DNA of 64,000 bases from Quercus robur (lineage: Eukaryota > Streptophyta > Magnoliopsida > Fagales > Fagaceae). Both the position numbers and the translations under genes were made by a program. Shown here one piece after another: positions 1 to 56,049 of the stretch. The stretch is taken from contig NC_065544.1 of the NCBI RefSeq assembly GCF_932294415.1, positions 16,653,351-16,717,350 of the forward strand. The letters run 5' to 3'. Numbering within the stretch: position 1 is the stretch's first letter; each line of letters starts with the position of its first letter. Under the pieces are notes generated by a model. The model saw only the letters and a list, made by a program, of their open reading frames with translations, made no database searches and was not told the origin of the DNA.

Positions 1-24
1 AAAATAATATATATATTCTTATAC

Positions 25-503: not shown

Positions 504-518
504 GTTGCCCCCCAAGTT
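504..518 (-). other. Polypurine tract
   Basis: Directly inside the 3' LTR the minus strand carries a GGGGGG run (508-513) followed by GCAAC and the LTR start TGACGGG. This is the expected place for plus-strand DNA priming. Confidence 0.7.
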
Positions 519-3190: not shown

Positions 3191-3454
3191 CTCTTCATAC
3201 TTAGAAAATTTTTTGTTTTATTGTGGGTGCCCGTCTTGTTTTGGGCCTTTCTTTTTGTAAATCTAATTTCAAAACAATTTACTTTATTTTGAAAACAATG
3301 ATATTGGCCCAGTGTTTATGGGCTGGAATGAAGCGTACTTACTTTTCTTCTTGATGTTCTGGCTGATTTACATTCATCCGTACTTTTTGTGCTTTGTTAA
3401 TTAGTTGTTGATTTAATGCGCTGTGCTCTTCCGTCAACTGACTTCTGCCATTTG

Positions 3455-3797
3455 ACTTATGTCCGTCCAGGCGGACTCTTGTCACTCGGTCTTTTAACCT
3501 TGTTATTATGGTCGTCAGTAACTTACATCCGTCAAGGCGGAATCTTGTTACTGTCTTTTAACCATAGTATTATGGTCGTCGGTAACTTACATCCGTCAAG
3601 GCGGAATCTTGTTACTTAGTCTTTTAACCATAGTATTATGGTCGTTGGTAACTTACATCCGTCAAGGCGGAATCTTGTTACTTAGTCTTTTAACCATAGT
3701 ATTATGGTCATTGGTAACTTACATCCGTCAAGGCGGAATCTTGTTACTTAGTCTTTTAACCATAGTATTATGGTCGTCGGTAACTTACATCCGTCAT
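3455..3797. repeat. 66-bp tandem repeat array (about 5 copies)
   Basis: The phrase ACTTACATCCGTCAAGGCGG recurs at 3521, 3585, 3651 and 3717, with a diverged copy at 3455 and a truncated one at 3783. Spacing is 66 bp apart from one 64-bp unit. The array lies between the end of pol and the end of the antisense gene, the hypervariable 3' region where Tat/Ogre elements often carry satellite-like repeats. Its right end coincides with the pol truncation point. Confidence 0.95.
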
Positions 3798-7067: not shown

Positions 7068-7122
7068 CTGGATATGGAGAATTGATGGAAACTACGTCTT
7101 CGAATATGAATTTGAAAACTCG

Positions 7123-7140
7123 TCCCCACAGATGGCGCCA
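7123..7140 (-). other. Primer-binding site
   Basis: Three bases inside the 5' LTR the minus strand reads TGGCGCCATCTGTGGGGA. The first seven bases, TGGCGCC, and the GGGGA tail match the complement of the 3' end of plant tRNA-Asp, the primer used by many Tat and Athila elements. The middle is mismatched, so tRNA identity is tentative. Confidence 0.7.
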
Positions 7141-7143
7141 AAC

Positions 7144-7622
7144 TGATGGAACACAGGTCCGTCAGTGAGTGAGCAGATGGAATCACTTGTGGAATGTGAT
7201 GGTTGGCTCGACGAGGGACACCGGTGTGGCGCCTGCCACAAAGTCTCCGATGCCAAAGTTAGGATCACAATTAAACACAGTAAAGAAGTAAAAGATCATT
7301 TCAGAGTATTTTTGCATATATCTCCCCTTCCGTTGATTGTATGGGAGCTTTATACCTGGGACCTTAGGGGCTAGCCGTTGAGGCTGTTAATGCTCTTAGA
7401 AGTAACGCCCATGGTCCAGTAATGAGACTTTTAAGAAGCTCCCAACGGTCTGCTTGGTTGATTTAGTAACTGCTCAGGTCATTGATTGGCTGCATTGAAT
7501 GACCTGCTGTCTTCGTCAGTGATGATGGTTTCCTCCGTTATTTCTGATGACCTCGTCATGGATGATTCCTTCGTCACTACTGTTATCTTCGTCAGTAGAA
7601 GGTAGAATCGTCATTCCCGTCA
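7144..7622 (-). repeat. 5' LTR of the left gypsy element
   Basis: This is the partner of the LTR at 25-503, with the same length and ends. The primer-binding site lies three bases inside it, which makes it the 5' LTR in element orientation. The right flank starts with the target duplication TATAC. Confidence 0.95.
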
Positions 7623-8159: not shown

Positions 8160-9050
8160 TCAATCTCCGTGAATCAGCTCTGTGGAGCCGAATTCCATGA
8201 CACCGTCAGCTAAGCGTATCCAAGACATGGTCTGGAGTCCATACTCATGGCCCTGGCGGGGTCGGTAGTACATCGAACTTGCCAAGGGGTCCTCCCCAGC
8301 ACGCCAGATGGGGATCGAACTGCTGAAAACTTGGCATAGGACACTGCCAAAGGTTAAGTTATCAGGCCACGACTCCCTGAGCTGGAAGAACGAGACAGCC
8401 TTGTCTTTAAACTTGAAATCATCCATATTGTAGAACCCTTTGACAGGACTCAAAGTGTGCCCTAAAGAAGAATTGGATAGCCCGTCTGACTCCCAGTATA
8501 TAGCGTAGGTCCACCTCTCGCGGCGGGCCTGATTGAATGCGGCCTCCACTTGCAGCGGAAAGATTTTTTTCTTCCTCATCGTTGATACTAAACTTAATTG
8601 AGCGCCAGTCCTTTATATTAGACCACTGTAAATGATATTCTTCAGTTTTACTCAGTTGATAGTGATGGGTTGGTTCCACTAAGAAGGATAGGAATAGTTT
8701 GGACGGAAGATTGAAGGTATGGAATGGACAAATTCGTAAGCTGGTCTTTCACTAGATGCTGAATTTGTCTTAGACTGTGTGGGAGGAAATAATGATGTTA
8801 TGTAATAAGGAGAGAAGTGTTTTGTTTGAGCAGATACGGAGCTTGAACGAGAGTTATCTGGTGGAAAGAAGGGTGGTATGGAAGAAGACAAGTGTGGAAT
8901 TAGCGTTTGATTATATAATGAAGCATCACCACTGCTACCAGACAGAGACTTTGCCGGTGGAAAGATCGAAAAGATAGAAAAACGTGGAATTTGTTCTTCT
9001 CTGTCTGGTGTACTGGGCAGAGACACATCGGCTGGGGCAATATATTCCAT
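8160..9050 (-). pseudogene. MYC_N-domain gene, copy A (pseudogene)
   Basis: It starts at ATG 9050 (MEYIAPAD), at the same place as copies B and C. The N-terminal part repeats short Ser-rich blocks ending in F-x-P-P, as in its relatives. TAG at 8679-8681 stops the frame after NYSYPS. Homology resumes in another frame (KFSINDEEEK) and then, near 8570-8580, in a third frame that runs RERWTYAIYW to GLQTMSWIRLADGVMEFGSTELI and ends at TGA 8160-8162. The C-terminal part matches the bHLH-MYC N-terminal domain. With a stop, a frameshift and a lost linker it cannot make the full protein. The promoter seen in B and C is also missing: similarity ends just beyond the start codon. Confidence 0.8.
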
Positions 9051-10360
9051 CAAATAATCCAAAAGGCGAAAGGGAAGATTAATAACAAGCGGTAAGGCCC
9101 AGTAAAACAGTAATAACTTATTAAATGATGACTTTGTTGTTTTCTGAAACCAAATCTTAGAAATCATGACTGAAGTGACTTCTGAAGTCTTTTGTTATTG
9201 AGCTTGAGAGTTGAACCTAGAAAAAGAGCAATGAATCAATGATCATATAGTCTGCAATATAAATTTAAATTCTATCATATTTATTCCCAAAAAAAAAAAA
9301 AAAAATCATGACTTGAAAACGTTAATTTGAGATGAGTTTTTTCAATATGTCTAGTCACAACAATTTTCACAAAATATTTCATAATTACCAAAATGACATA
9401 TTGTGAGTAATAGGGCTTAATTAGATGAGAACGAACAAAATCTACCAACTCAATTGCTGCGAAATTTTTTTTTGTTTATAGCACTTCTTGAGGTTTTTTA
9501 GAAAATGTCATTTAATGTATAGAAAATGCTAAAGATACAAGTTTTTTACTGCATAAAATTTATAAAATGATGTAGTAATGTAAGTGATTAGTGGACTTCA
9601 ACCATGTAATAAATGAATATTTAAAATGTATTTTAATAATTAGTAGCACACTAGTTTATAAGCTCCATATAGTAAAAGTTATAGTATCTCTAACAAAACT
9701 CTTGGTGTAGTCTTTCTTACTTTCTCGTATTGTGGTAATTTTGTAATTAACTTTGGACTCTATTACTTTCTAAAAAAAATATATATATATATCAGGATAA
9801 GGTGGTCTTTTTTATCGGTTTCATGTACATTCCAACTACAAACTACCAAGTTTTATATGTTAATTAAATTTGTTTGGAAAAGTTAACATATGTCCTAAAA
9901 GTATTGGTTTTGGAAATATTTTTAGAAGCTTTTTGTGGAAAAAAATAAATAATTGAATTTTTTTTTACACTTTTTTATATTTCCAATGAAAGTAGTATAA
10001 ATATTTTTCTAAAATAGTTTATTAACAAATGAAGTATCTCACCCAAATTTGCTTATGTCGAATAGAAGAGAAGATGAAGTACCAGACAAGGACTTGGCTA
10101 CAAGAAAGGGTGAAAAGATGGGAGTGAGAGAGTGAAAATATGAGAAATATAAAAACAGCTTATTTAACTTTTTGCTAAAAGTATACTTTGGAAAATAGTA
10201 TATGGGAAAATATACTCTTACTTAAAATAAAATAAAAAATTAAAAAAAATAAGTTTTAAAAAGCTGCATAAAAACTACAAAACAAAAAACTAGCTTATAA
10301 GTTAGTCTCATACACACTTGAAGTCTCACTAGATCATTGTTTGGTGCAAGTAGAGACATA
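9051..10360. other. Intergenic, AT-rich
   Basis: No gene is supported. It contains an A-run near 9290-9304 and a short TA microsatellite near 9780-9792. Confidence 0.6.
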
Positions 10361-10995
10361 TATGGATTCCATCACATTAATAATCCAAATGGCAGAAGGT
10401 CCTATTTAATGTGACTAAATTAAGGAGGGACCTATGGATGGATTGCAAATTAATGAGGATGGAATCAGCCAACTCCACTCTATGCCCTCCTTCATTTCGA
10501 TACAAATCTTCTGTACCACCTTTTGTGTTCTACTTTATATTCCACTAAACACAACTTGTTGTTTAACTCTCCTTATAAAATAGTCAAAGTTTAAAATAGA
10601 AAACAATAAATACGTGATAAGTTGAAATTGATGAAACATAAAATATGAATACAAAAAGTGGTACAAAAGATTTGTATTCTTTCCCTTCAATCCAAACAAG
10701 TCATTAAACAAAATGCGAAACAGTGGAGTGGAGTTTATTGGGAACTTCCTCACAACTAATATTCCGTGTTCCTTTGAGGATTGAAAACAAGCTGGTAAGA
10801 GTTTTCAAAACTTGTTTTCACCAAATTGAACTATTGTTGACTGACTGTTTATTATAAACACATCTTAAAAAATCAAGTCTCACAAACACTTTGTGGATGA
10901 GTTTATAGAAATCTACGTCATTTTGATGTTTTCTGTCTCCACTTCCTCGTATTCTAATATGTGCTAGTGGCAATTTTGTATATTGATCTCTATTT
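10361..10995 (-). pseudogene. MYC_N family relic D: 5' flank and first codons only
   Basis: The minus strand reads ATG at 10372 followed by GAATCCAT, the same first codons as copy B (MESI), then TGA after about 12 codons. Upstream of the ATG it shares ordered blocks with copies B and C: GTGACTAAA with a GGAGGGACC-like block, a CATTAAACAAAA block, AACTTCCTCACA, and farther out the ACACTTTGTGGATGAGT block (C: ACACTTTGTAGATGAGT near 25050). This is the promoter and 5' UTR of a fourth family member whose coding region is gone. A small inverted-repeat element splits it at 10499-10679. Confidence 0.65.
10499..10679. mobile_element. MITE-like element with about 33-bp terminal inverted repeats
   Basis: The left end (10499-10531) reads GATACAAATCTTCTGTACCA and on; the reverse complement of the right end (10647-10679) reads GAATACAAATCTTTTGTACC. 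The two arms match for about 33 bp with few differences. The 181-bp unit is absent from the matching places in the promoters of copies B and C, which supports insertion. I could not define a target duplication. Confidence 0.65.
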
Positions 10996-11843
10996 CGAAA
11001 CCCTGCGACTCGAAACCCATATTTCATTCACTATTTCCTTATCCCTCTTTAATTTGCTCTAAAGTTTCCTGCATTGACGTCTTCATCACAAGTTAGCACG
11101 TCAAAATCCAGTGGCCAATTCTAAATTTACATATGTCATTAAATTAATTAAATGGAATAGTAAAGAACAAATCAAATGAATGCTATGTGCTTCAAGTAAA
11201 ATAATTTAATTTACATATCTTGTAAATAGTATAAATGCTCTGTGCTTTGAGTAAAATAATGTAATTAGTTATAGTAATGACATGCTTGTTTAAAGCAAAA
11301 TAAAACAAAAAGAAATAAATAAATAAATAAACTAATAGTCGAAATCAAAGAACCTATTTCCCAAGCATGTCTTAGTCTTTACACAAGTAATTAGAAAAAA
11401 TTTGATATAATTTTTATAAGAAATATAAAAAACTGTCAACAAAATTAATTACTTTATCATTTTCCAATAAAATATTTCTATAAATAGTTTTTAAACCAAT
11501 GCCCTTAGGGCATTCTTTAATATTTCTCAAATATTAATATTACTATAATAACCATATAAATATACATGATTAATGTACCTTTCTATTTTAATTTTTCTCT
11601 CTCCGCTCTCTCCTCTTTCACCCTGGTCACTCTCTTTGTCTCTCTTCTTTGGACTCTCTTTAATGTCCAAAAAAGGGAGAGAGTTCTTTAACATTTCCCA
11701 TATATTAATATTGCTACAATAACCATAACATTTTTTTTTTTTTCTCTTTCCTCTCTCACACTTGTCACTCTCTTTCTCTCTCTTCCCTAGACTCTCTTTA
11801 ATGTCCAAAAAAGTAAGACAAGATATGAGTATTTAATAATAGG

Positions 11844-11882
<39 letters not shown>

Positions 11883-12512
11883 GAGTATTTAAATAAAACA
11901 TAGTGTATAATAGATAATTTTATGTAAGTTTTTTTGCCAAATATTTGTGTAAGATAGAAAAAGTTGATTATTATGCTAAAATAGATGGAATATTTTAGAT
12001 AGACTAACGTGAATACTCTTAGTTGAATAGAGCTTTTTATTCTAGTTCCCTTCTTGGTCAATATTCAATTGGATAATAGTTATTTCAGGTACTTCACTAA
12101 TTAAATCCTAATTGATACGCAAGCGCAATCACACTGAATCTGTAGCCTAATTATAGTAATCAAAATCCAATTTTCTCATAGAGTAAAGAGCCCCAAAAAA
12201 ATTTAAAGAAACACGTGCATATAAAATAACTCGAAGAATGCCTTCTTCTGCCATGACATTACCATTTTGGATTTTGCATTATGTTGCAACCATAAATGAT
12301 AGATGGATGCAAGAAGCCTACATAATTTCACATGAAACTGTTCCTCTTAAGCTCGTTAACTCCACAATACACATTTCATCCCAGTCAGACGAAGTTTTAT
12401 TCATCAGGCACATCTTCAACTTCAAGAGTCTTGCTGCCAAATTAAGCCTCCTAGTACATGAACACCCAATGTACATATGGTTTTTGCATACCATTTTCCA
12501 TTAACCAAGCCC

Positions 12513-12552
<40 letters not shown>

Positions 12553-12638
12553 TTTTCTTTTTTAATAAAAAATTTCTAAAAATACTTTATAAATCAATAT
12601 CCTTAATACATTCGTTAATCCTTCTCTCTCTCTCAAAT
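10996..12638. other. Intergenic, AT-rich
   Basis: No gene is supported. It holds a two-unit repeat at 11511-11818, a (TAA)n run at 11847-11880 and a (TA)n run at 12518-12548, the latter just downstream of MYC_N copy B. Confidence 0.6.
11511..11818. repeat. Two-copy tandem duplication
   Basis: The block ATTAATATTACTATAATAAC...GACTCTCTTTAATGTCCAAAA occurs at about 11533-11670 and again at 11704-11808, with a pyrimidine-rich (CT) middle of variable length. Confidence 0.75.
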
Positions 12639-13532
12639 TCAATTTGGGTGAATGAGCTCTGTGGAGCCGAATTCCATAACACCGGCAACTACGCGTATCC
12701 AAGACATGGTCTGGAGTCCATACTTACTGCCCAAGCGAGCCCGATAATACATTGAGCTCGCCAGGCGGTCCTCCCCAACCACCCAGATGGGGCTCGAAGT
12801 GCTGAAAACTTGGCAAAGGACGCTACCAAATGTGAACATGGGAATCGAATCCCTGAGCTTGAAGAACTGGATATAATTGTTTCTAAACTTTTGATTGTCT
12901 CTATTGAAGAAGCCTTTGGCTGGCCTAATATTTTTCAAGGAAGAATAGGATAGGCTGTCCAACTCCCAGTAGATGGCATAGGTCCACTTCTCGCAGGCCA
13001 TCCCTAACACCTCCTCAACTTCCTGTGGCAAAACTCTCTCATCATTGTCGTCCAAGTTATCAAATGTAATTGGGCACCAGCGAGGTACTTTACTCAAAAG
13101 AACTTCTTTAAATTCATGAATCAATTTGTTTGCGTCCGAAGTACACCGATCAAGGTCATGGGTTGATGCATTGGAACTAGAACAAGAATAGTTTGGCTGG
13201 AAGATTGAGGGTATGGTCTGATCAAATCCGTGACTTGATCTATGGGTTGATAATGAATTTGACTGAGACTGTGTGGGTGGAAAGAATGATGATATAGAAG
13301 GAGAAGAGAAGTGTTTGCTTAGAGCAGATAGGGAGCTTGACAGAGAGTTGCCTGGTGGAAAGAATGATGGTATGGAATAAGGAGACAAGTGTGGAACTGG
13401 AAGTGTTTCATTAGATAATGAAGTATTAAGCGTTTCATTAGAATTGTCTGGTGGAAAGATTGAAAAGATAGAATTTGGATTAGAAAAACGTGAAATTTGT
13501 ACTAAATCTGTGTCTGGTGTGATGGATTCCAT
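12639..13532 (-). CDS. MYC_N-domain protein without bHLH, copy B
   Basis: An intact single-exon gene of 297 codons, from ATG at 13532 to TGA at 12639-12641. Residues 1-150 are Ser/Asn-rich and repeat a module ending in F-P-P (SIFSIFPP, SIPSFFPP, SISSFFPP, TIPSIFQP). Residues about 165-296 match the N-terminal domain of plant MYC/bHLH factors (bHLH-MYC_N): KWTYAIYWELD, FGSVLCQVFSTSSPIWVVGE, and the terminal GLQTMSWIR...GVMEFGSTELI. In MYC2-type factors this domain binds JAZ repressors and MED25 and is followed by about 250 residues and a bHLH; here the protein stops at once. No DNA-binding region is visible. A nuclear regulatory or decoy role is inference. It is the best-preserved member of the local family. 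Confidence 0.8.
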   Translation of the reverse strand: MESITPDTDLVQISRFSNPNSIFSIFPPDNSNETLNTSLSNETLPVPHLSPYSIPSFFPPGNSLSSSLSALSKHFSSPSISSFFPPTQSQSNSLSTHRSSHGFDQTIPSIFQPNYSCSSSNASTHDLDRCTSDANKLIHEFKEVLLSKVPRWCPITFDNLDDNDERVLPQEVEEVLGMACEKWTYAIYWELDSLSYSSLKNIRPAKGFFNRDNQKFRNNYIQFFKLRDSIPMFTFGSVLCQVFSTSSPIWVVGEDRLASSMYYRARLGSKYGLQTMSWIRVVAGVMEFGSTELIHPN

Positions 13533-13747
13533 CTAATACACGAAAAGGCAAAAGGGAAGATTAATGTGACTAAAAAACTGGGAGAGAGGGAACTACGGAT
13601 AGATTGTACAAGGATAGCATCATTTAAACAAAAAGAGAAGCAGTAGAATTCATTGGATTCGGAAACTTCCTCACATCTACTACTTGAGTGTTGCTGCCAA
13701 TTGAGGCATCCTTTGCAATATTGCCACAATAATACTAATGCCACTTA

Positions 13748-13755
13748 CTTTTATA
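13748..13755 (-). promoter_or_regulatory. TATA box of MYC_N copy B
   Basis: The minus strand reads GTGTATAAAAGTAAG about 215 bp upstream of the copy B start codon, a good plant TATA box. It implies a 5' leader of roughly 185 bp. Confidence 0.5.
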
Positions 13756-15691
13756 CACACTTTACCACAAATACTATTTAATGTGGTAAACTATATATGA
13801 TTGATTGTTTATTACTATCATATAGAGCTGTAGTTTTTTCTTAATCACTTACAATCTGTCACATAGGACAATTATGAGAAAGTGTGTTACTAACATTATT
13901 AATCTCCTTCCACCGCTAAAACAAAGTCAGAATTTAAATCCAACCTCTCTCTCTCTTTCTCTCTCTCTCATAGCCAGGCCTTGTGGGATTTGATTTTTGT
14001 ATTACCATTGTGGGTCCAATGTGGGATAGGGATTCATGGATTTATCAAGGTGTCTATTCAGTTTTTGTAATATTCATAAAGAAATGATATTTCACTTTAA
14101 AAAAAAAAAAAATTGACATATTATTGTTTCATTTGCCACCTAAGTATCGATAATAAGGATTGGGATCCAATGCAATTGCACCATGCAATTCACCCCAATG
14201 CCTCACAATTTTTTTTTTTTACTTCTTTTACCTTTTTAAATTATTCATATTTTATATTTCATTATCAAGGTTTAAAGTTGCTTTTTGTAACTTTAAATCT
14301 CAACCATAGAGATGGAACCACCCTTGGATTAGGGGGGGACAATGGTCCCCTCCTAAATTTTAAAAAATATATATATATATTATTATATATGTGTACTAAT
14401 TTTAGTAATTTTGTTTTATAAAATTACATTTTTTTTTCCCTTTAATAATATCATTGATTCTTTTAAGAGTAATGCTAAATTCACAAACCTTTTTATAACA
14501 TTTTTACAAACTATTTTAGAAGCAAATTCTTATTGATTCGCATATGGGCACATCACTCACATCATTTTTTTACTTACCAGTAATTATTTATCACATCACT
14601 AATTTATATTAAAAATATATATATTTGTAGCTCTAACATTTTCTTCATTTTAGTGACCATAAAAAAATTTATAGATCTAAAATCTAAAACAAAATATACA
14701 AGCCAAAAAAAAAAAGCTCAACGACAAAAATTATTAGTAAAACTAAAAACAAAATTAAGCTCAATTGATTAATTTTATCCAAAATAAATAACCTTGCCCT
14801 TTAAAAAATTCTAAACAAAAATAATTTTGTTCTTACCCCCCCCCCCCCCCTCCCCCTCCCCACACACACACACACAAAAAAATTTCAGCTGCTAAATAGT
14901 AGAATCAGAGGTTTAACCGTCACACACAACCAACAGTAAAATTGCCCCTAACTCAAAATTCTAGTTCCATCCCTACATCCATATCAATTACATCAGTATT
15001 ACACCTAATCTCAATCACAATACAAACTTTTGTAATTTTGTGAGCGGCACCACATGACTTACAACAATGTCAACATGTTATCTTCTTCTTACACCGACCT
15101 TAATTGTTGGCAAAAACTCTCTCTCTCACCGAAATTCTCTCGGAAATATTTCCTATTTTTCCTCTAGAGAGTTTCCTGCATAAGTAAAATTTCGACCACA
15201 ATTTCTCTATTGGTCTAGAAGATGTCTTGGGCAAGAATGGGGAAGAAATATAAAAGTCGGTGGGTTGGTATAAATAGGTAGAAGGTAGGTGCCCATTAAT
15301 TTGGTGCGAAGCAATAGTGTAAATTCCTACGTGTCTAGAGAGTAAGGACTGAAGTGTGCGGTGTTGTTTGTGTCTATTGGGATTTCCATAAGACGAAAGA
15401 GTTGTACTTTCAAATTGTCTTGTGTAAAGATAAAAGCATTTTTGTACTCTTATCATGTTTTTTATTTCAACAATCTTGTATTAAAGGTTTACTTTTGTAG
15501 TTGTATTCTAGTTATATAATCTATATCTATATTTATACATTATTAAAAATTGAAGCATAGCATTTAATGTTGTTACGCTCAAGTTAAGCCATATTTGCAG
15601 CCATGTCATTACCATATTTTTTCTTGAATTTGTCCTACAATTTAAAAATCTTAATAAAAAGAAAATAATTCTCAACCCTATCTCTTTCACG
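13756..15691. other. Intergenic, low-complexity rich
   Basis: No gene is supported. It includes CT microsatellites near 13945-13970, a poly(C)/(CA)n cluster at 14837-14875, and a stretch at about 15105-15470 with a TATAAATA-like box (near 15270) that resembles an LTR but has no pairing copy or target duplication. Confidence 0.5.
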
Positions 15692-15799
15692 GTTACAATT
15701 TCAAACAGCAACTTTTTGTGTTCCACAGTTACAATTTCAAACAACAACCCTTTGTGTTCCACAGTTACAATCTCAAACAGCAACTCCTCAACTTCCTAA
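15692..15799. repeat. 36-bp tandem repeat, three copies
   Basis: GTTACAATTTCAAACAGCAA begins at 15692, 15728 and 15764 with small changes. Because 36 is a multiple of three the block stays open on the minus strand as a 12-residue repeat (FEIVTVEHKxLL), but no larger gene surrounds it. Confidence 0.85.
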
Positions 15800-15874
15800 T
15801 GCCAAACTTTGGCTTTCTAACTCATTCATCTCTTCCTCTCCTCACACTATATTAATACTGAAAATCTCTATCTA

Positions 15875-16795
15875 TCTATATATAATATAAAACACCACTC
15901 CTTATTGTTTGCAATTCAGTATTGTTGCTAACAGTCTAATATCACTTTTCTTCTAATACATGCATAAGTTTAGTTTCCATGTAAATATATTTTAGATTGT
16001 GTTTGGCAGGGAATGATGAAAAATTAGCTGTTTGCAAAGATCGTTAAGCTAATGTTTGCATCAATTACTAGATGGAGGATTTTGTTAAAAGAGTGAAGCA
16101 AGAAACTGGTGGAAAATGTATCTTCTCTAATATTAAAACCTCACTTTTCTTCAATTACAGATTAGTGAAACTAAAGAATATGATTATTATTTTGTTAAGT
16201 GGACATTTTCATAGGGAGGTCTTTGTTATTGTCAAGGAAGTTAATAAGTTATTTCCTTTTTCAAGGTATATAAGTTGCACTTTTAGGAGTATTTAGGATA
16301 CCATGGAAAAGAAAGAACACTGCTAAGGGCCTAAAAACAACTTTTTGTTACTCTTTGGGGCCATGTTTAACTTTGCCTTGAGCTGAAAAATGAGACTACA
16401 TCATACAAAAATATAATCCCTCTGTAGAATGCACAGCAATATAGAGATACAACCGTATACAGTAATAAAGATTTCCATCCATGAGAAGTGGAAGCATACA
16501 AGCATAAACAAATTATTTTTGTACTTATTTGTATGTGATTTTTGTTGTTATATTATTGCAATTTTAATGAGGAAATTGTTCTATTAACATATGAAATAAC
16601 TATCAAGTTACTATTAACCTTGATTTATTTGTTCATATATTATCTAGAGATAACATATATAATATTATATCATGTTAATATGAAATTAATTGACATTTTT
16701 TGATTTATTAGTACTTAATAAAGAAAACAAATATGTATAATATATTAAAATAAAATTGCCAAACTTTTCCGTGCATAACACGGGTTAGCGACTAG
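15875..16795 (+). mobile_element. Non-autonomous Helitron (921 bp)
   Basis: The 3' end is diagnostic: a short hairpin CCGTG-cataa-CACGG, a spacer, and the terminal CTAG at 16792-16795. The proposed 5' end, TCTATATATAATATAAAACA at 15875, fits the TC-start consensus of plant Helitrons. Insertion is between A (15874) and T (16796), as expected, with no target duplication or inverted repeats. No Rep/helicase coding is present. A 74-codon open frame at 16072-16296 has no recognisable domain. The 3' end is firmer than the 5' end, where nearby TCTAT repeats give alternatives a few bases away. Confidence 0.75.
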
Positions 16796-16797
16796 TG

Positions 16798-17064
16798 TGT
16801 TATAAATTCGGTTTAAAACATTAATATTATTATTTTCATGTGTATTCTAATAAGTATTACTGTTTACTCAAAAAAAAAATATGGATGTTTATCCCACATT
16901 GGTTGTGTGTCTAGTGTCTGCTATTTATAACCTCAGTCTACAACTACAAATGTTAAACCCTTTTGTAGTTGTATTTTGGTTATGTAATGTATTATAAATT
17001 TGGTCAAAATACCAATATTACTGTTTTCATGTATGTTCTAATAAGTATTACTGTTTACTCAAAA
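16798..17064. repeat. Direct repeat pair, about 75 bp, 190 bp apart
   Basis: TTATAAATTCGG...TAATAAGTATTACTGTTTACTCAAAAA at 16800-16871 recurs at 16990-17064. It starts just outside the Helitron 3' end. A third partial similarity (TTTTGTAGTTGTATTCTAGT near 15494) lies left of the Helitron, so the Helitron probably entered an already repeated region. Confidence 0.7.
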
Positions 17065-17460
17065 AATAGTGGAGTTAATTATCTATTTAGGGCTTATCTT
17101 AGTTTTAGCGAAGCTAGCCATTTAATGAAAGCTTTTTTTTTTAGAAGAAATTTTGTTTTTTGAGAATTTTTTTTGTTTGAGAAGAAATGAAAGCTCAAGT
17201 TCGTCACATTAATTCTTGCTAAGAGGTGAGAGCATCAGATATTATCTATATAGAAATATGAGAATTGGTTCTCTCTCTCTCTCTCTTTTTAATGAGAATT
17301 GGTTCTCTCACACTATGAGATGCCACAACTATTAATAAGTTTTGGGTTTCAGCAAAAGAAAAAAGAATAAGCTTTGGTCAATCACTATCTAGTATCTATA
17401 TAGAACTTATTGTATATCATTCATACACATCACCAATTTTTTATTTTAAATATGTATATC

Positions 17461-17499
<39 letters not shown>

Positions 17500-17704
17500 G
17501 ACATAAGATTATAAATGCTATGTCGTATATGAGATGTACATTAATAAGTGTGAGAGAACAATAAATTATATGTATCATCTCTTTGCTACGCTTTTCAAGG
17601 AATGCAAAAATAATCTCTCATAAGGATTGAGCATTAGCAAGCAAGTAGACAAGTCACTCGGGCAGCTGGGGTAGATGTGCATGCATTATGGTTTTCTCAA
17701 CCAA

Positions 17705-17744
<40 letters not shown>

Positions 17745-18310
17745 CACTCACTTTTTTTTTTTTTTTTTACATTTCACCTCAATTCGGTTTCAACCCGTAC
17801 GTGCAAGTTAAGATTTTTGGAGATTATCTTGTAAAGATCTCAAAATCCTTAATAGCACATTTACACATCATCTTTGTCAAAAGTTGTGTCTTTTGTGTTT
17901 GCAAGAAAATGAAGAGTAAAGTTGTGACAGAAATATACACAGATTTTTTAATGTGGAAAACCTTTATGTTGGGAGAGGGAGAAAACCATAGATAGAAACC
18001 AGTCGAATATTCCACCATTTTCTGAAAATGGATACAATGGAGGTATTGTGTTACAATGGAGAAAAAAAGAAGGAAAACAGTGAAGATAGGAGAGAAAGAA
18101 GAGGTAGGAAAAGAGCTTCCACTGTAGTGTCGTAATGGTCCATGACTGATCTTGCTATCACTTTCATCCACTATCTTTGACACATGAACCACAACTAATG
18201 GCTACATGCTTGCTATGCCTTGGATACGTGGTGATGGCAGATTGACTCATTATAAGCGAATCCAATATACCCCACTTTTGGGGTTGGTGACCGTAGACTA
18301 CCATTTTCCA

Positions 18311-18345
<35 letters not shown>

Positions 18346-18477
18346 TTTCATAGACCGATTTAGATCAAATAGATAAAAGTGGACTAAAATAGACCAAATT
18401 AATAGAATTGGATTAAGTGGACCAAATAGACCAAGTGGACCAGAATGAACCAAAGTGGATTAACGCTTTCATTCACC
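17065..18477. other. Intergenic, microsatellites
   Basis: No gene is supported. (CT)n near 17270-17285, (AT)n at 17464-17496 and 17713-17741, T-run near 17751-17768, (AAT)n at 18316-18342, and short degenerate AGTGGACCAAAT-type repeats at 18365-18460. Confidence 0.6.
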
Positions 18478-19640
18478 ATAGAGAGGATTTCTTATTTGTG
18501 TGAGGGGAAAAATTAACATGAATGAAAATGTCAGGAGGCAAATTGCTTTGTAGGCATTATTATATGGGGTATTTTGGGGAGAAGGGGTGTTATCCAATTG
18601 ACATGTCTCTTGGGAAATTTTTTCGAAGGGTTAATTAAATTTATTGTGCATAAACTATTTTACAAAGTTTTTGCACACACTCCAATAAGCAACTAAAATC
18701 TTAACCTCTAGTTGCTCTAGTCAATAAGATTTGAATAAAGTGTACGGAAAGCATATCAAGGTGAGTCATAGTATGTGCAAATCTTAAATATGATTGGTAA
18801 TTTTAAGTTAGTTATCGCATATAAAAGCATTCTAAACCATTCAAGTTAGTTGCTTGGTAAATCTTGAGAACAGTTTTAAATGTGAAATTTGGTATAGTCA
18901 ATTTCAACCTTCATGCTCTTTAAGTCATAATTAATTTACTGATCAATTATAAAATTTGTATAACCTGGAATATTTATTTCCCCAGAAATTGCATTCTACT
19001 ATGCTATGACTTCTTACGGAAAAATAGAGATGCTCAACTATTTAAGTACAGAAAAGCATATTAAGGTGAGTCAAATATTAGATAACAGTGGTAATTTCAA
19101 GTTATTCCCCGCATATAGAAGCATGTTAAATTAAACCATTCAAATTAGTTGCTTGGTAAATCTTGAGAACAGTTTTAAAGTCAACATTCGGTTTAGTAAA
19201 TTCCAACCTTCTTCTTCTTAAGTCTGTAGTTAAAAATAGTAATTTACAGACCAAACGATAAAATCTGTATAAACTAGATTTTATATTTCCCCAGAAATTG
19301 CATTCTACTCTGCTATGACTTTTAATGGAGGAATAGAGATGCTAAAAACTATTTAAGTACCCTTTGTCCTAAAGAAAACTTTGGAAAATTATGCAAATAG
19401 AACTTAGCAGCTTCAACTCTCTCTGGTATTCCAGAATCCTTTCTGTGGTGACATTTTTCAGCATTGTAACTAAAAATCCCTGCTTTTACAGCGGATGTGG
19501 AATCTTCAAATACCAATCTTTCTATAGTCAATGACATTTTCAAAAGGCAATTCAATTCAAAAGGTAATCAAAAGGTCGGCGTGATGCTGGTGTGGAACCA
19601 GCAGGATCTAGTAGAAAAGTCTGTCATTGACAGCCAACAA
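18478..19640 (-). repeat. Segmental duplication, copy Y (paralog of 21485-23190)
   Basis: This block matches 21485-23190 in the same order and orientation. Shared runs include TTCTTATTTGTGTGAGGGG, GCAAATTGCTTTGTAGGCAT, CAAATCTTAAATATGATTGG and the GT47 exon at the right end. A second internal duplication occurs here: 18790-19056 and 19057-19370 both contain GTTGCTTGGTAAATCTTGAG...AGAAATTGCATTCTACT...AACTATTTAAGTAC. Confidence 0.85.
19385..19640 (-). pseudogene. GT47 (exostosin-type) exon 2 fragment, copy Y
   Basis: On the minus strand the reading AATCCTGCTGGT, then GCCGACCTTTTGAT, then GAATTGCCTTTTGAAAATGT-CATTGACTATAGAAAGATTG matches exon 2 of the ARAD1-like gene (NPAGD...[13 protein letters not shown]). 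The stretch for [11 protein letters not shown] is deleted and the frame shifts after YRKIGI. Similarity continues through the IxDSTSAxK and EYQREL segments and ends where the exon donor would be. It cannot make a functional enzyme. Confidence 0.8.
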
Positions 19641-19740
19641 ACTGAAGAAAGAATACCAGGAAATAGCATTAATTTGGAAACCACCTCAACCTCAGGTCTG
19701 TCGGTTTTGATGTTGTTCCACCCATGGACCTTAGGTAGCT

Positions 19741-21484
19741 AGGCTGTTGCAATTTTTGTGGGCCTCAATGGCCAATACCATCAATTTGGTTTATAGGTTT
19801 CTCTATCCATGTTGACAGGCCTCGAGGTTATCTTCTTCTTTCAGTCATCCCCATGTGTTGGTTCAGCCCAAACATGTGGGTTGTGCTTGCTAGCTTTCTG
19901 TGCCTAATTTAAATTTGCTCCAAGTGCTTATTTTTTAAATCTTGTTTTCAAAAACTATTTTTACCAACACATTCAGGTTACTTAATTGGTAAAAAATTGG
20001 GCTAACAAGTCTCAGCACTTGGGTTTGAGCCTCAAACAACTAACTATGTAGTAGTACTCCTTATATCTCATCTCCGTCCTAAACGATCTACCTAACTTAA
20101 CTGACATAGAATATAGAGTCTTGCCCAAAAGCAATTAGGGTGTAACTATAGTTAAGCTTAGATAGGGAAGCCACACTGGTTACCCTCTCTATCCATTTTT
20201 CTCTTACCAAAAAAATTTTAAAAAAAAAAAAAAAAAAAAAAAATATTTTCACATTTTAGTGTGAAATAGGTTTATGAAAACCACTAAAGGACCCATTTTT
20301 AGAATAAAAATAATAAAAAATAAAACTAAACTTGGTGGCATTATTGTAAATAACTCCAAAATAGTGGGCTCACACAAATTGACTTGTCTCAATCAAGTTA
20401 TTAAACAGTCATAACTTTACAACCAATGTAAAAGTCATATTTAATGAGCTATTATATAGGCTTCCTATTAACGTTATAGAAATCCGCGATGTGAATGGAG
20501 AATATTTCACAACAATTCCATAATCTCAATTTAACACAAATATATAATTCATATCATTAAAATAAAAGAAAACAAAAGTAATCAATTCATAGTTAAATGA
20601 CAACCTAGTTAAAAGATTATTATAAATACATAAAGTTAAAATAAGTAATTTGATTTTTTATAATAAATTAGTGTGAAAGTGTTAAGAATATAACAATGTG
20701 CTTACAAAGTTGTATCCTCACCATCTTGAATGCTCCTAAAAAAAATATAGAATTCAACATTTTTTTTATTATTCTTCTAAGAGGTTAAAATTTGTATCTA
20801 TAGAAAAAAACACTAAGTTTAATGCTAAAAAAATAAAAAAAGTGTGGAGGCTAGGGTATAAGGATATAAGTAGGATTTTTTTTTTTAAGTATGATTATGA
20901 ACCCACTAAGAGGGGAGTTAGTATATTCACAAGCTAATTTAGATTTTGAATAATAATACTATCTACACAACTCTTTTTACAACAAATTTCACAATTGTTA
21001 AAGTGATTGATTGTGAGTGGCGGATGCAAGTGAAACATATGAAACCATCATTTTTTTTTTCTCTGCCATTTATAATAGACCGCTTTAACAACAATGAGTC
21101 TAAAATTTAAAATATTTTGCACAAAATTTTTCATAATCACTAAGTTGGCTAGTTGTAAAATGTTAAACAATTGAGTAATGTGATTGGTTGACCCAAATAA
21201 GAATTAATAGCAACTTAAAACTCAATAGTTGTAAAATATTGTATATGTAGCATTGTTCCTTTAACAAAGGTAAAATTCGTTTTAAAAAAAGTTGTATTGG
21301 TAGCATTAATTATCTTTGAATTGCGTTAAGAAATGTCAAACTTTTAAAAGTCATGGAAACCTATCAAAATTCAAAAGCACAAAACTTGCAGTCTTAGGTG
21401 CGACCCATTGAACTTTATTTTAATTGTAAAATGACGTATAAAAGTAATATGCAGTTATATGGATATATGGGCTTTTAATTAACA
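19741..21484. other. Intergenic between the two duplication blocks
   Basis: No gene is supported. Contains a possible tRNA-derived SINE (about 19978-20243), an A-run at 20220-20243 and AT-rich DNA. Confidence 0.5.
19978..20243 (+). mobile_element. Possible tRNA-derived SINE
   Basis: A pol III-like A box (GGTTACTTAATTGG) and B box (GGGTTTGAGCC) about 45 bp apart are followed by roughly 190 bp and a long A tail. The arrangement fits a SINE, but the boxes are degenerate and no target duplication was found. Confidence 0.35.
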
Positions 21485-22064
21485 GACGAGAGATTTTCTT
21501 ATTTGTGTGAGGGGCAAATTGCTTTGTAGGCATTATTATACGTCGGGTTTTTGGGGAGGTCAAAGGGGGCATTTGCCTCCCACGATTCCCCTTTGACCTG
21601 TGGGTTTAGGTGGAACGATCCATTCAAAAGAGTTGGGTAGGATTTGAGTCTTTCTTGCGTTGTTCAATTGACACGTCTCTTAGAAAATACTTTTGAAAGA
21701 TTAAATTTGTTGCATACAAACTATTTGTCACAGTTTGTACATGCCAAACAAAACAACTAAAATCAAGAATTCAATTGCTTTGGTCAAGAAGATTTGAATA
21801 AGTATACCAGAAATCGTGCCAATTAGGTGAGTCATAGCATGTGCAAATCTTAAATATGATTGGTAATTTTAAGTTAGTTGTTGCATATAAAAGCGTGCTA
21901 AACCATTCAAGTTAGTTTCTTAGTAAATCTTGAGAACATTTTTAAATGTGAAATTCATTATAGTCAATTTCAACCTTCATGTTCTTTACGTCATAATTAA
22001 TTTACTAATCAAGTGATAAAATTTGTATAAACTAGAATATTTATTTCCTCAGAAATTGCATTCT

Positions 22065-22235
22065 TTTTTTTTTCTTTTTTTTTTAATACAAAATAGAATT
22101 TCAACTCTAACCTAATTTAATTGTATATGTGTATGAAACTCCCTCCTAGAGACTTGAATCCTGCCCCTTATTCCTACACCCCATAAGCACTTATATGTAT
22201 GGAGTGATCACTGCACCAAGAGTGCGCGATGGTCT
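22065..22235 (-). mobile_element. tRNA-derived SINE with 14-bp target duplication
   Basis: Flanked by AGAAATTGCATTCT at 22051-22064 and 22236-22249. On the minus strand it starts GACCATCGCGCACTCTTGGT, has an A-box-like GGTGCAGTGATCAC and a B-box-like GGATTCAAGTC, and ends in an A-rich tail (T-run at 22065-22084 on the plus strand). The paralogous blocks at 18790-19370 have one copy of the target and no insert, which confirms the insertion. Confidence 0.9.
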
Positions 22236-22288
22236 AGAAATTGCATTCTACTATGCTATGACTTCTTATGAAAAAATATAGATCCTAA

Positions 22289-22755
22289 GGATCTGTTTGG
22301 TTAGCTAAAAAAAAAACACCGTTTTTTGTTTTTATTTTCAATTTTTAGTGAGTTTCACCACTAAAAAACTGGTTTGGTTTTAGCATTTGTATTCAATTTT
22401 CATTTTCAATATTCTAAGAGTTAGATTTGAATACAAAAAATGAATACAATTTTTCAGTGTTTTTGTTTTCTATGAATACGAATACAATGACATATTCATA
22501 AATATTATGAAAACACAAAATTACTTTTTTTTTAGTGATGTGATGTGTGTGGATGAGAAAAGTTATTATTTTTTTTAATAGAAAACATGACCAAACTCGG
22601 GTATGTTTTATATCCAAATGATGTATTCAAAACAACTTACCAAATATTACCAAATGTGAAAATAAGTGTTTTTTCTATATTCAAATTCAAGACTTGAATA
22701 TAGAATAAAGAAAATGAAAAGTGGATACACCACTTTTTGAAACCAAACAGGCCCT
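22289..22755. mobile_element. Tourist/Harbinger-like MITE (about 467 bp)
   Basis: The ends form inverted repeats: GGATCTGTTTGGTTAGC on the left and, as reverse complement of the right, AGGGCCTGTTTGGTTTC. The flanking trinucleotide TAA (22286-22288 and 22756-22758) fits the TWA target of PIF/Harbinger elements. The paralogous block Y lacks it. Confidence 0.75.
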
Positions 22756-22794
22756 TAACTATTTAAGTACCCTCATCTTAAAGAAATTTTGTAA

Positions 22795-23190
22795 AATTTA
22801 TGCAAATAGAACTTACCAGCTTCAACTCTCATTGGTATTCCAGAATTTTTCTGTGGTGACATTTCTCAACATTGTAACTAAAAATCCCTGCTTCACAGCA
22901 GAGGTGGAATCTACAAATATTACAATCTCTCCATAGTCAATGAGATCTTCAAAAGACAATTCAGTTCTGTAACTTACTACTATTGTTAGGACACACATGC
23001 TAAGTATAGCATCAAAAGGTCGCCCAAAACAGGCGTGGAACAGTCAGGATTAAAGCAGAACTTTGATGAGTGCAAACCTTGTGAATCTAAACTCTGATAG
23101 TTAATGTGTACTGGTGCTCCATGTTTCATTATGACATTTTCTTAATTTTCAGGTACTTGAAAATACAAACCACGGACTTATCCAACCTAC
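22795..23190 (-). pseudogene. GT47 (exostosin-type) exon 2, nearly full-length decayed copy X
   Basis: The minus strand aligns with almost all of exon 2 of the ARAD1-like gene. Matches include TTTCAAGTACCTGAAAATTA, GTCATAATGAAACATGGAGC, AAGTTCTGCTTTAATCCTG, and a reading ELSFEDLIDYGEIVIFVDST followed by GFLVTMLRNVTTEK. An extra base then breaks the EYQREL segment, and a TGA replaces its arginine codon. Earlier stops interrupt the SLCVPVII part. A GTAAGT donor is still present at the exon end, but no GT47 exon 3 follows on this side. Confidence 0.8.
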
Positions 23191-23606
23191 AAATGCAGAA
23201 TCAGCTAGTGAGGCCACCAAAGTATAAATCTCGGTCAAGACAATATTGCTTTGCAACCAAACATCTTTTGTCAAGAAACTTCTGCAACTCTGATGGCTTA
23301 TAAAATCTCTTGGCTGCAAAAGACCATTAACTATAGCTAAAAATTGCTCTATATTTTAGTGGAATGAAGGAATTTCAATTTTGTAAGCAAAAAAACATAT
23401 TATAGACAGTTAGATTACTAATAGAAATGGGCAGTCTCAATATGAAAACAAATAACAAAGTCAAACATGAAGAGCCCATATGTAAATTTTGGAACATAAA
23501 TGGTCAAAATAAATACAATCCAAAACTTTTAAGAGGCAAAATTATACTTTAGTCAATAAATCTTGAGTGTATCCAAGACATGATTCCCATGGCCTTGTTG
23601 AGACAG
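23191..23606. other. Intergenic, 3' of MYC_N copy C
   Basis: No gene is supported. Near 23567-23600 there is another degraded copy of the family's GTATCCAAGACATG terminal motif. Confidence 0.55.
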
Positions 23607-24740
23607 TCAATTAGTTCTGTTGAGCCGAATTCCATGGCACTGTGTGCTAAGCGTATCTAAGACATGGTCTGGATTCCAGCTTATATTTCTCACACAATCT
23701 AGTCGTTCTAATACCAGCTCGGCAATCTCTGCATCTGCATGGTTTTCGATAGGAAATAAATCTGACTGAGTGCAGGCCTGATTTACTTCCTTGACGCAGC
23801 GCAGCGCACGTATCCAAGACATGACTCTTATGGTATTGGTGAGGTCCACATTTTGTGCGTGTCGCTGTGGGAACACACGACCTTTTTTCCTGTTGAACTG
23901 GTGAATTACCTTTGTTGAGCCGAATTCCATGACACCATGCGCTACGCGTATCCAAGACATGGTCTGGAGTCCAGCCTTCCGGCCCTGTTGAGCCCGGTAA
24001 TGCCTCGACTTTAGCAGGGTGTCGCCAACAAGCCAAAGGGGCTTTGAACTCGAAGTGCTGAAAAGTTTATGTATGATGCTGCCTGGCCATGATCTCCTGA
24101 GCTGGAAGAACGAGACAGCCTTGTCTTTAAACTTTTGATCATCCTCGTCCACATTGTAGAACCCTTTTGCAGCACTGAAAGTGCGCGACCAAGGAGAGGA
24201 TGGCCAGTCTAACTCCCAGTAGATAGCGTAGGTCCACCTCTCGCGGCAGGCCTTCTTGAACACTGCTTCAACCTCTTGTGGGAATTTCCTCTCGTCCTCT
24301 TTGTCAGAGATGTGAAATTTAATTGGTTGCCAGCGAGGTATATTAGGCTCATCATGCCTCAACTTGCTTTTGTTTGATGTATTCTGATCATGGTGATACC
24401 GGGTTGATTCATTTGGAGGCGAATAGGAATAGTTTGGCCGGAAGATTGAGGGTATGGAATGAGCTAATTCGTGAAATGGTCTTTCACTAGTTAATGAATT
24501 TGGCTGAGACTGTGTGGGTGGAAAAATTGATGGTATGGAATAAGGAGAGTAGTGTTTGGTTTGAGAAGATACAGAACTTGACAGAGAGTTGTATGGTGGA
24601 AAGAAGAATGATATGGAAGGAGAGAAGTTTAAAGGCGTTTGATTAGATAATGAAATATCACTACCAGACTCAGACTTGGCTGCTGGAAAGAGCGAAGAGA
24701 TGGAATTCGGATCAGAAGAACGCGGTGCAATGGATGCCAT
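23607..24740 (-). CDS. MYC_N-domain protein without bHLH, copy C, extended C-terminus
   Basis: A single open frame of 377 codons from ATG 24740 (MASIAPRSS), the start shared with copies A and B. The N-terminal third repeats the Ser-rich module ending in F-P-P (SISSLFPA, SISFFFPP, SIPSIFPP, SIPSIFRP). The MYC_N domain follows: RERWTYAIYWELDWP, FFQLRRSWPG, KPLWLVGD, and GLQTMSWIRVAHGVMEFGST. Compared with B, the TFGSVLCQ segment has become SIIHKLF. Where B ends, C continues for about 100 residues built from degraded re-copies of the terminal motif in shifted frames (MSWIRALRC, DHVLDTLSTQCHGIRL). No bHLH is present. Open frame length argues for a real protein, but the added tail looks like recent noise. 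Confidence 0.7.
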   Translation of the reverse strand: MASIAPRSSDPNSISSLFPAAKSESGSDISLSNQTPLNFSPSISFFFPPYNSLSSSVSSQTKHYSPYSIPSIFPPTQSQPNSLTSERPFHELAHSIPSIFRPNYSYSPPNESTRYHHDQNTSNKSKLRHDEPNIPRWQPIKFHISDKEDERKFPQEVEAVFKKACRERWTYAIYWELDWPSSPWSRTFSAAKGFYNVDEDDQKFKDKAVSFFQLRRSWPGSIIHKLFSTSSSKPLWLVGDTLLKSRHYRAQQGRKAGLQTMSWIRVAHGVMEFGSTKVIHQFNRKKGRVFPQRHAQNVDLTNTIRVMSWIRALRCVKEVNQACTQSDLFPIENHADAEIAELVLERLDCVRNISWNPDHVLDTLSTQCHGIRLNRTN

Positions 24741-25808: not shown

Positions 25809-27866
25809 TCATCGGGTGGTAGCAATGCCACTTTGATTTGAACAGTGACATGCAGAGCAATCTGGCTCAGTCACATGCATTGTGGCAAGCCTTCTGTCAC
25901 AACTGATCATCAGTTTAATCAAGGGGAGCTTCTGTGATACTTGGCGCCAGACTTCATTCACTGTCCCATTTGGATCTTTGTACTCAAAGTTTCGCTTCAC
26001 CTGAATTACAAGAACTAAATTGAGAATAATTAACCTTAGGAAGCTGGTGTTACTAGCACACTTTGATCTCTGATTCTCTACATATTAGGTTCTATGTCAT
26101 GACAAATTATTAAAAGAAGATTTATGGAAAATTTCAATGCATAAAGAATATGCAGCTGCCATGTCACCATCATTATTGTGATTTGTGAACATTATCATCA
26201 GGTGACTAGTATCACAAAAATCTTCATGTCCTCCACAAGTCAGATGCTAAGCAGAATCAAATGTTTCCAAAATGTCCTCTCACTCATCGTATCAGCAGAA
26301 AAATACTACCAATTTGGTTCATCTAAGGTGATGCACTCATGCAAGTCCAACTGAATCAGTCAAAAGTAAAATATATTTTTGTTAAGCATTGGATCCCGGA
26401 GCTGTAATGGAAGCTATCTCTTTCAAAAGTCTAATAACTCAATGGAAGGAAAAGAACACATCAAGGCAAACAATTGAATTCCATAGCTGAGGAAGGCTGT
26501 ATACTGACTATCCAACACTGCTCTTGCTTGCCAAAGTTTGGAGAATGGTCCTATTCTAGCTCCAACAACTACAAAAAGCGTCTAGTTTGGCCTAATTTCC
26601 TTCAGTATTTCTCACTTTGAGAGATCATTCTTTGTATTCAGATCATTTATGGGGTATTCGGAAAATCACATATTTATTTCAATTCATGATGAACAAAAAT
26701 TCTTATCCCACTGCATTCAGAAGTAGCAAAAAGTTGCTTAACTAGTCTGACTCCCTAAAAAGCTCAACCTCAACAAATACACTTTGATTCATTGTGTATA
26801 TATAATAATAATTAATCTCTAAATGCAGTGAACCAAACTATGTTGGTATGCTTGTCTCAAAAAACATAAAAACTATATTGATATGCTTAACTGAGTCCAA
26901 TAAAAATCATATTAAACAACTAATAAATAATCCAATAGCAACTTTTTTTTTTTTTGGTTAAACTTAAAATCTAAAAGCAACTCAATAATTATAATATTTA
27001 AAAGAAATAAAAACCCAAGAAGAAAAATTGATTTAATTTAAATAATTACCTTTGCGAAACCGATTGCCCATGAAGAACAACAACGTTTTCCGATCCTCAA
27101 CGCCGACATCTCCATTATAGGCACTAATCTTATGCGAGTCAGGCACCACCACATCCTTAACCAACGAGGAATGGCCGGGCCTTACCCGCCCGAGATCCGA
27201 GACCAACAACACGGCATTCTTGACCCGATCCATGACCCGGTTCAACGCATTCGGATTCTGGCAAACCAACACGTGGTCCCTCCTCTTGTTCCTCCTCCAA
27301 TACTCTTGCCCCTCCAGCCACGTCACCAGCTCCTCCTGCGTCTCCGAATCCGAGTACTTCTTGACCTTACCCGACCCGTTCGCAGAATGGGTCCTGCTCA
27401 CAACCCAACTCAAAGAAGAGAAAAACGGCACGTAAAACAAGTCAGCTTCGTTAGGATCCATGACCCGAATGACTGGAGACCCGGTTCGTTCATTTTCGGG
27501 TCGGGTTAAGTCCAGCAACAAGTGCCACTCCAAGGAGTGCTGGTGACTCGGGTACTTGAGTTTTTGGAGCGTTGACTTTGCCACGTCAGCAAAACCATGT
27601 GCTGTCCAGAAATGTTCGACAACGCCGTAGGTGAACTTTGTCGGAAGATCATCGTACATGTAAACTTTGACTCGCATGGAGGAAGAAGAAGAAGAAGAAG
27701 TGTCGGGTGAAATGGGAGGAAGAAGAATATTGGGCCTAATGGGCTTGGTGGGTTTTGAGGAGGCCCATGATTGAATGGTGGTGAAGCAGATATAGATGGA
27801 TAGCACGAAGAAAAGCATGGCTGTGAGTGTCTGGTTCAACAGCCAAGTCCTGCGCCTTTTGTTCAT
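25809..27866 (-). pseudogene. GT47 (ARAD-like) gene with exon 2 missing
   Basis: Exon 1 (27866-27050) is open from ATG for 272 codons: a short basic N-terminus, one membrane anchor ([16 protein letters not shown]), then GT47 blocks [63 protein letters not shown] and [12 protein letters not shown]. Exon 3 (26000-25809) reads VKRNFEYKDPNGTVNEVWRQ and ends SNQSGIATTR. Exon 2, which holds the conserved C-terminal half of the glycosyltransferase domain, is not found in the 1,049 bp between them. Exon 1 ends one base into a codon (donor GTAATT at 27049) and exon 3 starts on a codon boundary, so a direct splice would shift frame. The intact family member at 40912-46341 shows the expected three exons. 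Confidence 0.8.
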
Positions 27867-27869
27867 CAC

Positions 27870-28554
27870 TAAATAACGGAAGCTAATTAAGCTTAATGAT
27901 CAGTGACAGTTAGTGATTTTTGGAAATACAAAAAACAAAAACAATGCAACGTTCTTTAAGATTCCAATTATACAGAAACAAGTGTGTATTTTTTTTTTAA
28001 CAATATAGATATATATAGTGCATGGAAAGAAGTGATTTTTAAATAAAAAAAAACATATATATTTTACTAATACTTGTATTATTATATAAATATGGTATCG
28101 ACAGCAGGTTTATATGTAGAGCCATCTCTATTGACTCATAAGAGTTAAGAGAGAGATTTGTGGTTGTGAAGTTGTGACCTACAAGGCTACAACTTGTGAG
28201 GGCGGTGTCGGTAGTGAACATGGAGACAATGTGCGCAGAGAGGAAGATAGAGACGTGTGTGTCGAGGAGGGTATTGAGTTATTTGAGGAGGGTTTATCTT
28301 TCACTTTCACCCGATGAAGAAAAAGAAATATGAGGTTTTACGTGGTTTCTTGTTACTATAATAGAGGGGTATGATAAGAGAAGAGAAAGTGACAGAATTT
28401 TATGGTTTAAATTATAGAAAAGAAAAAAAATCAAAGATGATATAAGAGAAAGTGACTTTTTTTATGTATATAAATGGTATGGAGTAAGGACTACCGTTTA
28501 TTGGAAAGATAATGTTTACAAAATTACAAGTGTCATTAATAATTATTAAGAAAG

Positions 28555-35202: not shown

Positions 35203-35233
35203 TTTTCTTCTCTATTTCCCTTTTTATATTATC

Positions 35234-56044: not shown

Positions 56045-56049
56045 GTATC

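What the first reader, a model, noticed from the sequence alone, without database searches (positions are those of the whole stretch)
8160..24740. Local family of MYC N-terminal-domain proteins that lack a bHLH
Four same-strand loci share a start context, FPP-module N-terminus and a MYC_N domain that ends at GSTEL(V/I)I. Two are open over 297 and 377 codons. In MYC2-like factors this domain binds JAZ repressors and MED25. Proteins with only this domain could titrate JAZ or Mediator and tune jasmonate output. I know of no described family of this form.
Basis: partly seen in the sequence, partly recalled or inferred. Interest (0 to 1): 0.8.

Follow-up and report, generated by a model that had tools for sequence, protein, structure and literature searches.

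The report
MYC2-derived proteins without DNA-binding domain
A plant chromosome carries a cluster of genes that kept one end of a jasmonate master regulator, lost its DNA-binding part and most of its repressor-binding groove, and gained a repeated short motif that also seems to turn up in front of two other kinds of defence-related protein.

Summary

JAZ or MED25 titration is unlikely for the window copies: the JAZ-contact Asp (MYC3 D94) is kept in 5 of 5 bHLH-bearing paralogues but in 1 of 12 cluster copies aligned, and the 8 B-type copies among them lack most of MYC3 98-147.

Unexpected: FPP-like repeats also precede, in frame, a BIK1/PBL2-like kinase start (five loci on C4) and EXO70 (four of five loci on C39); the reversed query found nothing. 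This suggests a mobile multivalent motif array on defence-hub carriers. Function is untested, and the EXO70 link rests on one query.

The parts
12639..13532 (-). Copy B, intact single-frame gene (297 codons + stop)
   Evidence: translation; PF14215 51.1 bits
13041..13532 (-). B: N-terminus with FPP modules starting at residues 21, 53 and 79 (S-I-[PS]-S-[IF]-F-P-P...S); low model confidence, taken as disordered
12645..13040 (-). B: shortened MYC_N (GAF-like) domain, residues 165-296
23607..24740 (-). Copy C, open over 377 codons + stop
   Evidence: translation; PF14215 45.2 bits
24285..24740 (-). C: FPP-repeat N-terminus, 4 modules
23904..24284 (-). C: shortened MYC_N domain, residues 153-279, ends GSTKVI
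23552..23680 (-). C': partial tandem copy of the end of the domain, in another frame
8160..9050 (-). Copy A, broken: FPP N-terminus and domain in different open pieces, stops inside
   Evidence: domain piece 48.2 bits
10070..10445 (-). Decayed fourth locus: start context and first FPP module only, no MYC_N found

Best explanation
B and C are members of a tandem-amplified plant gene family derived from a MYC2-type transcription factor. Each protein has a probably disordered N-terminus of 3-9 FPP modules and a folded MYC_N (GAF-like) domain, and no bHLH, so none should bind DNA itself. In the B-type branch the MYC_N domain has been trimmed to its structural core: the JAZ-contact Asp and most of the stretch that in MYC3 runs from the JID to the activation domain are gone. 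Shown by sequence: domain make-up, no bHLH found, erosion of that stretch, a history of selection. Inferred: these proteins do not titrate JAZ or MED25; they work as JAZ-blind, DNA-blind carriers that display an array of FPP short linear motifs, and so bind or bait an unknown partner many times over. That similar arrays precede a BIK1/PBL2-like kinase and EXO70 suggests that the array is the working part and that the setting is defence. Step by step: bHLH-less MYC2-derived coding family 0.9; not a JAZ/MED25 titrator (window copies) 0.75; FPP array as bait or scaffold 0.3. The figure given is for the whole statement.
Against: No transcript, protein or interaction data. Decay is common: A and the 16397 and 16472 copies carry stops, the 16589 copy is split over two frames, H is frameshifted, and broken A also shows domain omega 0.33-0.49, so a low omega records past constraint only. 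The omega tests are pairwise, uncorrected and not independent; E does not differ from neutral against B, C and F. The FPP-EXO70 link rests on one query (I8); C's own N-terminus found neither C4 nor C39.
Confidence: 0.4

Rival explanations
1. JAZ or MED25 sponge: the MYC_N-only proteins bind JAZ repressors or MED25 and so raise or lower jasmonate output.
For: The domain is a MYC_N by profile and predicted fold. I7 (C40:16611411) keeps D94, E148, W149 and L152 and matches MYC3 at E 1e-39.
Against: B, C and the other 6 B-type copies aligned lack D94 and most of MYC3 98-147; I9 and M6 carry Asp to Asn there, the change that releases MYC3 from repression by most JAZ (PMC4466561, passage); I8 has Phe; I7 has Lys at M155.
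Confidence: 0.15
2. Dying gene cluster: duplicated MYC2 N-termini that were functional for a while and are now decaying, with no present role.
For: Four broken B-type copies (A, 16397, 16472, 16589), H frameshifted, fragments at 16562 and 16568, C with a scrambled tail, E near neutral; A's domain still shows low omega although it is broken.
Against: B, C, D, F and G stayed open at pairwise dS 0.37-0.57, which neutral drift rarely allows; domain omega below 1.
Confidence: 0.3
3. Heteromer poison: the domain still docks on full-length MYC or MYB proteins through its conserved second half and blocks them.
For: The invariant columns lie mostly in the second half of the domain. MYC_N domains bind MYBs: 7fdm (MYB29 with MYC3), 7fdl and 7fdn (WER with EGL3) are such complexes (titles).
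Against: MYB partners of MYC2/3/4 use the JID too (PMC7767404, passage), which is eroded here; no MYC_N-MYC_N contact was tested.
Confidence: 0.15

Closest known systems
MYC2/MYC3/MYC4 (bHLH subgroup IIIe, label recalled), N-terminal region
   Same: MYC_N fold and WTYAI.W ... G(V/I)(V/M)E.GST core; an N-terminal LSSFWPPPPS-like motif
   Different: No bHLH; JAZ-contact Asp and most of MYC3 98-147 lost in B-type copies; the FPP motif present 3-9 times
RSS3 (rice)
   Same: Recalled: a MYC_N-like protein without a working bHLH. Passages in PMC4773313 and PMC6784130 describe RSS3 in a ternary complex with JAZ and a bHLH factor
   Different: RSS3 works with JAZ; the window copies lack the JAZ-contact residues; no FPP repeats recalled for RSS3. 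RSS3's sequence was not compared here
JAZ-released alleles MYC3 D94N (atr2D) and MYC2 D105N, E165K
   Same: I9 and M6 carry Asp to Asn at the D94 column; the B-type copies and I8 have other changes there
   Different: Those alleles are of full-length bHLH factors
NLR-integrated decoys (NLR-Exo70, NLR-kinase)
   Same: Exo70 and kinase domains are known NLR fusion partners and effector targets (PMC4759884, passages)
   Different: Here the shared part is an FPP array; NB-ARC was not searched for, and the word MYC does not occur in that paper's main text (find)

Membership tests
Pfam bHLH-MYC_N (PF14215) | score over the curated cut-off of 30.2 bits | tested here: met
MYC2-type bHLH transcription factor | bHLH DNA-binding domain in the same protein | tested here: not met
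   B and C frames hold no HLH match; none in 200 kb around; 0 of 40 HLH matches on C40 (lower bound, split genes missed)
JAZ-binding MYC | JID with the D94/D105 Asp and the TAD start | tested here: not met
   B and C have Lys at D94 and keep 12 and 14 of the 50 residues MYC3 98-147; binding itself not testable here
RSS3-type non-bHLH MYC_N protein | ternary complex with JAZ and a bHLH factor | not testable with these tools
   needs interaction data; RSS3 sequence not compared
NLR integrated decoy | NB-ARC/LRR in the same protein | not tested
   B and C show only PF14215 and, in B, one sub-cut-off hit; the C39 and C4 fusions were read over 321 and 325 bases only

The most novel reading that the evidence does not exclude
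The FPP array is a mobile N-terminal module of this plant lineage. It may have grown by amplification of a motif in the MYC2 N-terminus (DLSSFWPPPPS) and has been put on at least three unrelated defence-hub carriers, each tandem-amplified on its own contig: MYC_N (C40), BIK1/PBL2-like kinases (C4) and EXO70 (C39). The common array would make all three act in one process, for example as baits for the same pathogen effector or as clients of the same unknown receptor.
Probability: 0.25. Interest if true: 0.88.

Novelty: new variant of a known kind. Interest (0 to 1): 0.62.

Why it matters
Within one genome it shows a master regulator's interaction domain cut loose from DNA binding and, in a graded series, from its repressor: own MYC2, forms with most of the domain (M6, I7, I8, and I9 with less), then trimmed forms (B, C); the branching order is not resolved. 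If the FPP array truly is shared with BIK1/PBL2-like kinases and EXO70, three hubs of plant defence carry one tag, which would point to a common partner that can be fished for directly.

Tried and rejected
Rejected or limited: (1) A spliced bHLH exon: none in C40:16.56-16.76 Mb by tblastn with own MYC2 residues 331-697, nor there and in 8 cluster loci by an HMM of the five own bHLHs; the whole-genome HLH search had none on C40, but it misses split genes. I7 and I9 have AAG|GTTAG, a donor-like site, after the domain; what may follow was not resolved. (2) FPP matches as mere Ser/Pro composition: the I8 N-terminus read backwards gave 0 matches against 39 forwards. (3) The exact-motif DNA pattern as proof: 38 matches, 19 of them at C40:15.87-16.68 Mb, one in the C4 cluster, one on C5 inside the FPP match, none in the C39 cluster, 17 elsewhere; the backward control gave 100, so it shows clustering on C40 only. 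(4) I7's predicted structure (mean pLDDT 46.5) is too weak to rest on, though it aligns to MYC3. (5) IQ-TREE codon runs did not print omega and were dropped. (6) C's N-terminus as query found no C4 or C39 place; I7 and I9 found three C4 kinase loci each, not C39. (7) NCBIfam gave nothing over a cut-off for B, I8 or the C39 piece; Pfam gave nothing for the C39 and C4 pieces; Rfam gave nothing for the window. (8) Ten paper searches (MYC_N without bHLH, RSS3, truncated MYC2, JAZ-MYC3 structure, bHLH-less MYC2, MYB-MYC structures, EXO70/kinase/MYC2 fusions, Quercus/Castanea) listed no such family in the listings that I saw; subscription journals are mostly not held. Quercus/Castanea was a guess at the host; the species was not identified.

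Full report
What is in the window. On its minus strand are two open FPP+MYC_N genes, B (297 codons) and C (377 codons), and a broken one, A. Pfam bHLH-MYC_N scores are 51.1, 45.2 and 48.2 bits (B, C, A piece) against a cut-off of 30.2. C's domain ends in GSTKVI, and its extra 98 codons run through a partial tandem duplication.

The cluster. PF14215 has 32 matches in the genome; 15 of them (14 loci) lie at C40:15.86-16.68 Mb (lower bounds). B as query adds further copies and fragments there. On domain sequences (17 rows: 12 cluster copies and 5 canonical MYC-type genes; frameshifted H and the copies at 16063, 16397 and 16589 were not used), the 8 B-type copies (A-G and 16472) form one supported clade (100/99) and I7+I9 another (99/98). 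The order of I8, M6, own MYC2 and these clades is unresolved. I7, I8 and M6 keep 40, 43 and 50 of the 50 residues MYC3 98-147, I9 keeps 23.

No bHLH. The five canonical genes (L001-L005) carry HLH in a frame of the same length as their MYC_N frame; of 40 HLH matches in the genome none is on C40 (lower bounds, split genes are missed). Own MYC2 residues 331-697 find nothing in C40:16.56-16.76 Mb. An HMM of the five own bHLHs finds nothing better than E 8 in that stretch plus eight cluster loci, while its control scores 3e-47.

Selection. Pairwise maximum-likelihood omega among B, C, D, E, F and G (6 open B-type copies; H left out): domain 0.32-0.83, 12 of 15 pairs below 1 at p<0.05 (uncorrected, not independent; the three others all involve E); N-terminus 0.66-1.61, 0 of 15 differing from 1. 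Neutral drift of 0.19 substitutions per site, about half the smallest pairwise dS, keeps such frames open in at most 0.37% of 4000 runs for each of five copies tried. Broken A also shows domain omega 0.33-0.49, so this records past constraint, not present function.

The FPP module. 44 modules in 10 copies (H included) have the consensus S-I-[PS]-S-[IF]-F-P-P-[NT]-x-S; the last Ser (95%) was not part of the search pattern; spacings are 24-32 residues, with two of 51 and 55. In shuffles of three N-termini the mean count was 0.004 or less, against 3, 4 and 9 observed. Own MYC2 has DLSSFWPPPPS at residue 35; 28 of 5000 shuffles and 4 of 253 frame pieces without FPP score as high, and MYC3 aligns there with SSLFPPPPQQ. 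An origin from this motif is suggestive, not shown.

FPP beyond MYC_N. The I8 N-terminus (338 residues) has 39 matches at E<=0.001: 20 on C40, 10 on C4 (best 2e-11), 6 on C39 (best 5e-10), 1 on C5, 2 on C37. Read backwards it has none. One C39 place, read on for 321 bases, continues in frame into EXO70: 7pp2 at 6e-18, 4rl5 at 5e-7. The Exo70_C profile maps a tandem cluster there; of 5 FPP loci 4 are in the reading frame of the EXO70 match 3' of them, 3 of these with one open-frame length for both (563, 651, 1191 codons), the fourth with stops. One C4 place, read on for 325 bases, continues in frame into a kinase start like PBL2 (3e-9) and BIK1 (9e-8). Five of the 10 C4 matches abut such a start at gaps of 0, 3 or 6 bases, 4 of 5 in frames of equal length. 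In the C4 locus that was read, the kinase frame breaks soon after GEGGFG, by an intron or a frameshift. Partners of the other 5 C4 matches and of C5 and C37 are unknown. Results against: I7 and I9 reach C4 (three loci each) but not C39; C's N-terminus reaches neither; the exact DNA motif occurs once in the C4 cluster and not in the C39 cluster. The FPP letters on C4 and C39 themselves were not read.

Reading. The family is a bHLH-less, probably JAZ-blind derivative of MYC2 rather than a JAZ sponge. The part most likely at work is the FPP array; its partner is unknown. Defence is suggested by the company it keeps (kinase and Exo70 domains recur as effector targets and NLR fusions, PMC4759884, passages) and by tandem birth and death. 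This last step is inference. None of the ten paper searches listed a description of such proteins (listings only).

Noticed in passing
G000:C4:1.50-1.93 Mb and C39:52.36-52.46 Mb: FPP-like arrays precede a BIK1/PBL2-like kinase start and EXO70 genes in tandem clusters; the 1191-codon frame at about C39:52457700-52461038 holds two FPP matches and three EXO70_C matches.
   Followed up: partly
C40:15866038-15866880 (-) and L006: An FPP match in a 517-codon frame lies about 1.2 kb 5' of the MYC_N copy M6; the part read is Ser/Thr/Pro-rich and its frame ends before M6.
   Followed up: partly
L012, L013, L014, L015, L019 (C37, C1, C40, C39, C35): Five MYC2-like fragments cover the same first 53 profile positions on five contigs; in L012 the frame then jumps to the domain end (VELGSTEVIFQSSDLMNKV), as if a copied, deleted MYC2 piece had spread.
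   Followed up: no
23-7441: Retrotransposon-like stretch with 99% identical 300-nt direct repeats at its ends; gag, reverse transcriptase and RNase H matches on the minus strand, a gypsy-type Transposase_28 match on the plus strand.
   Followed up: no
33324-38069: Plus-strand element: DUF4283, a zinc knuckle just under its cut-off and a reverse transcriptase match, LINE-like.
   Followed up: no
27033-27899 (-) and 40792-41979 (+): Two exostosin GT47 genes in inverted orientation, 296-nt arms 74% alike.
   Followed up: no
55894-58815: Long open frame with a plant mobile domain (PF10536).
   Followed up: no
18481-19558 and 21488-22967: Diverged direct repeats, 76-92% alike in pieces, between B and C.
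   Followed up: no
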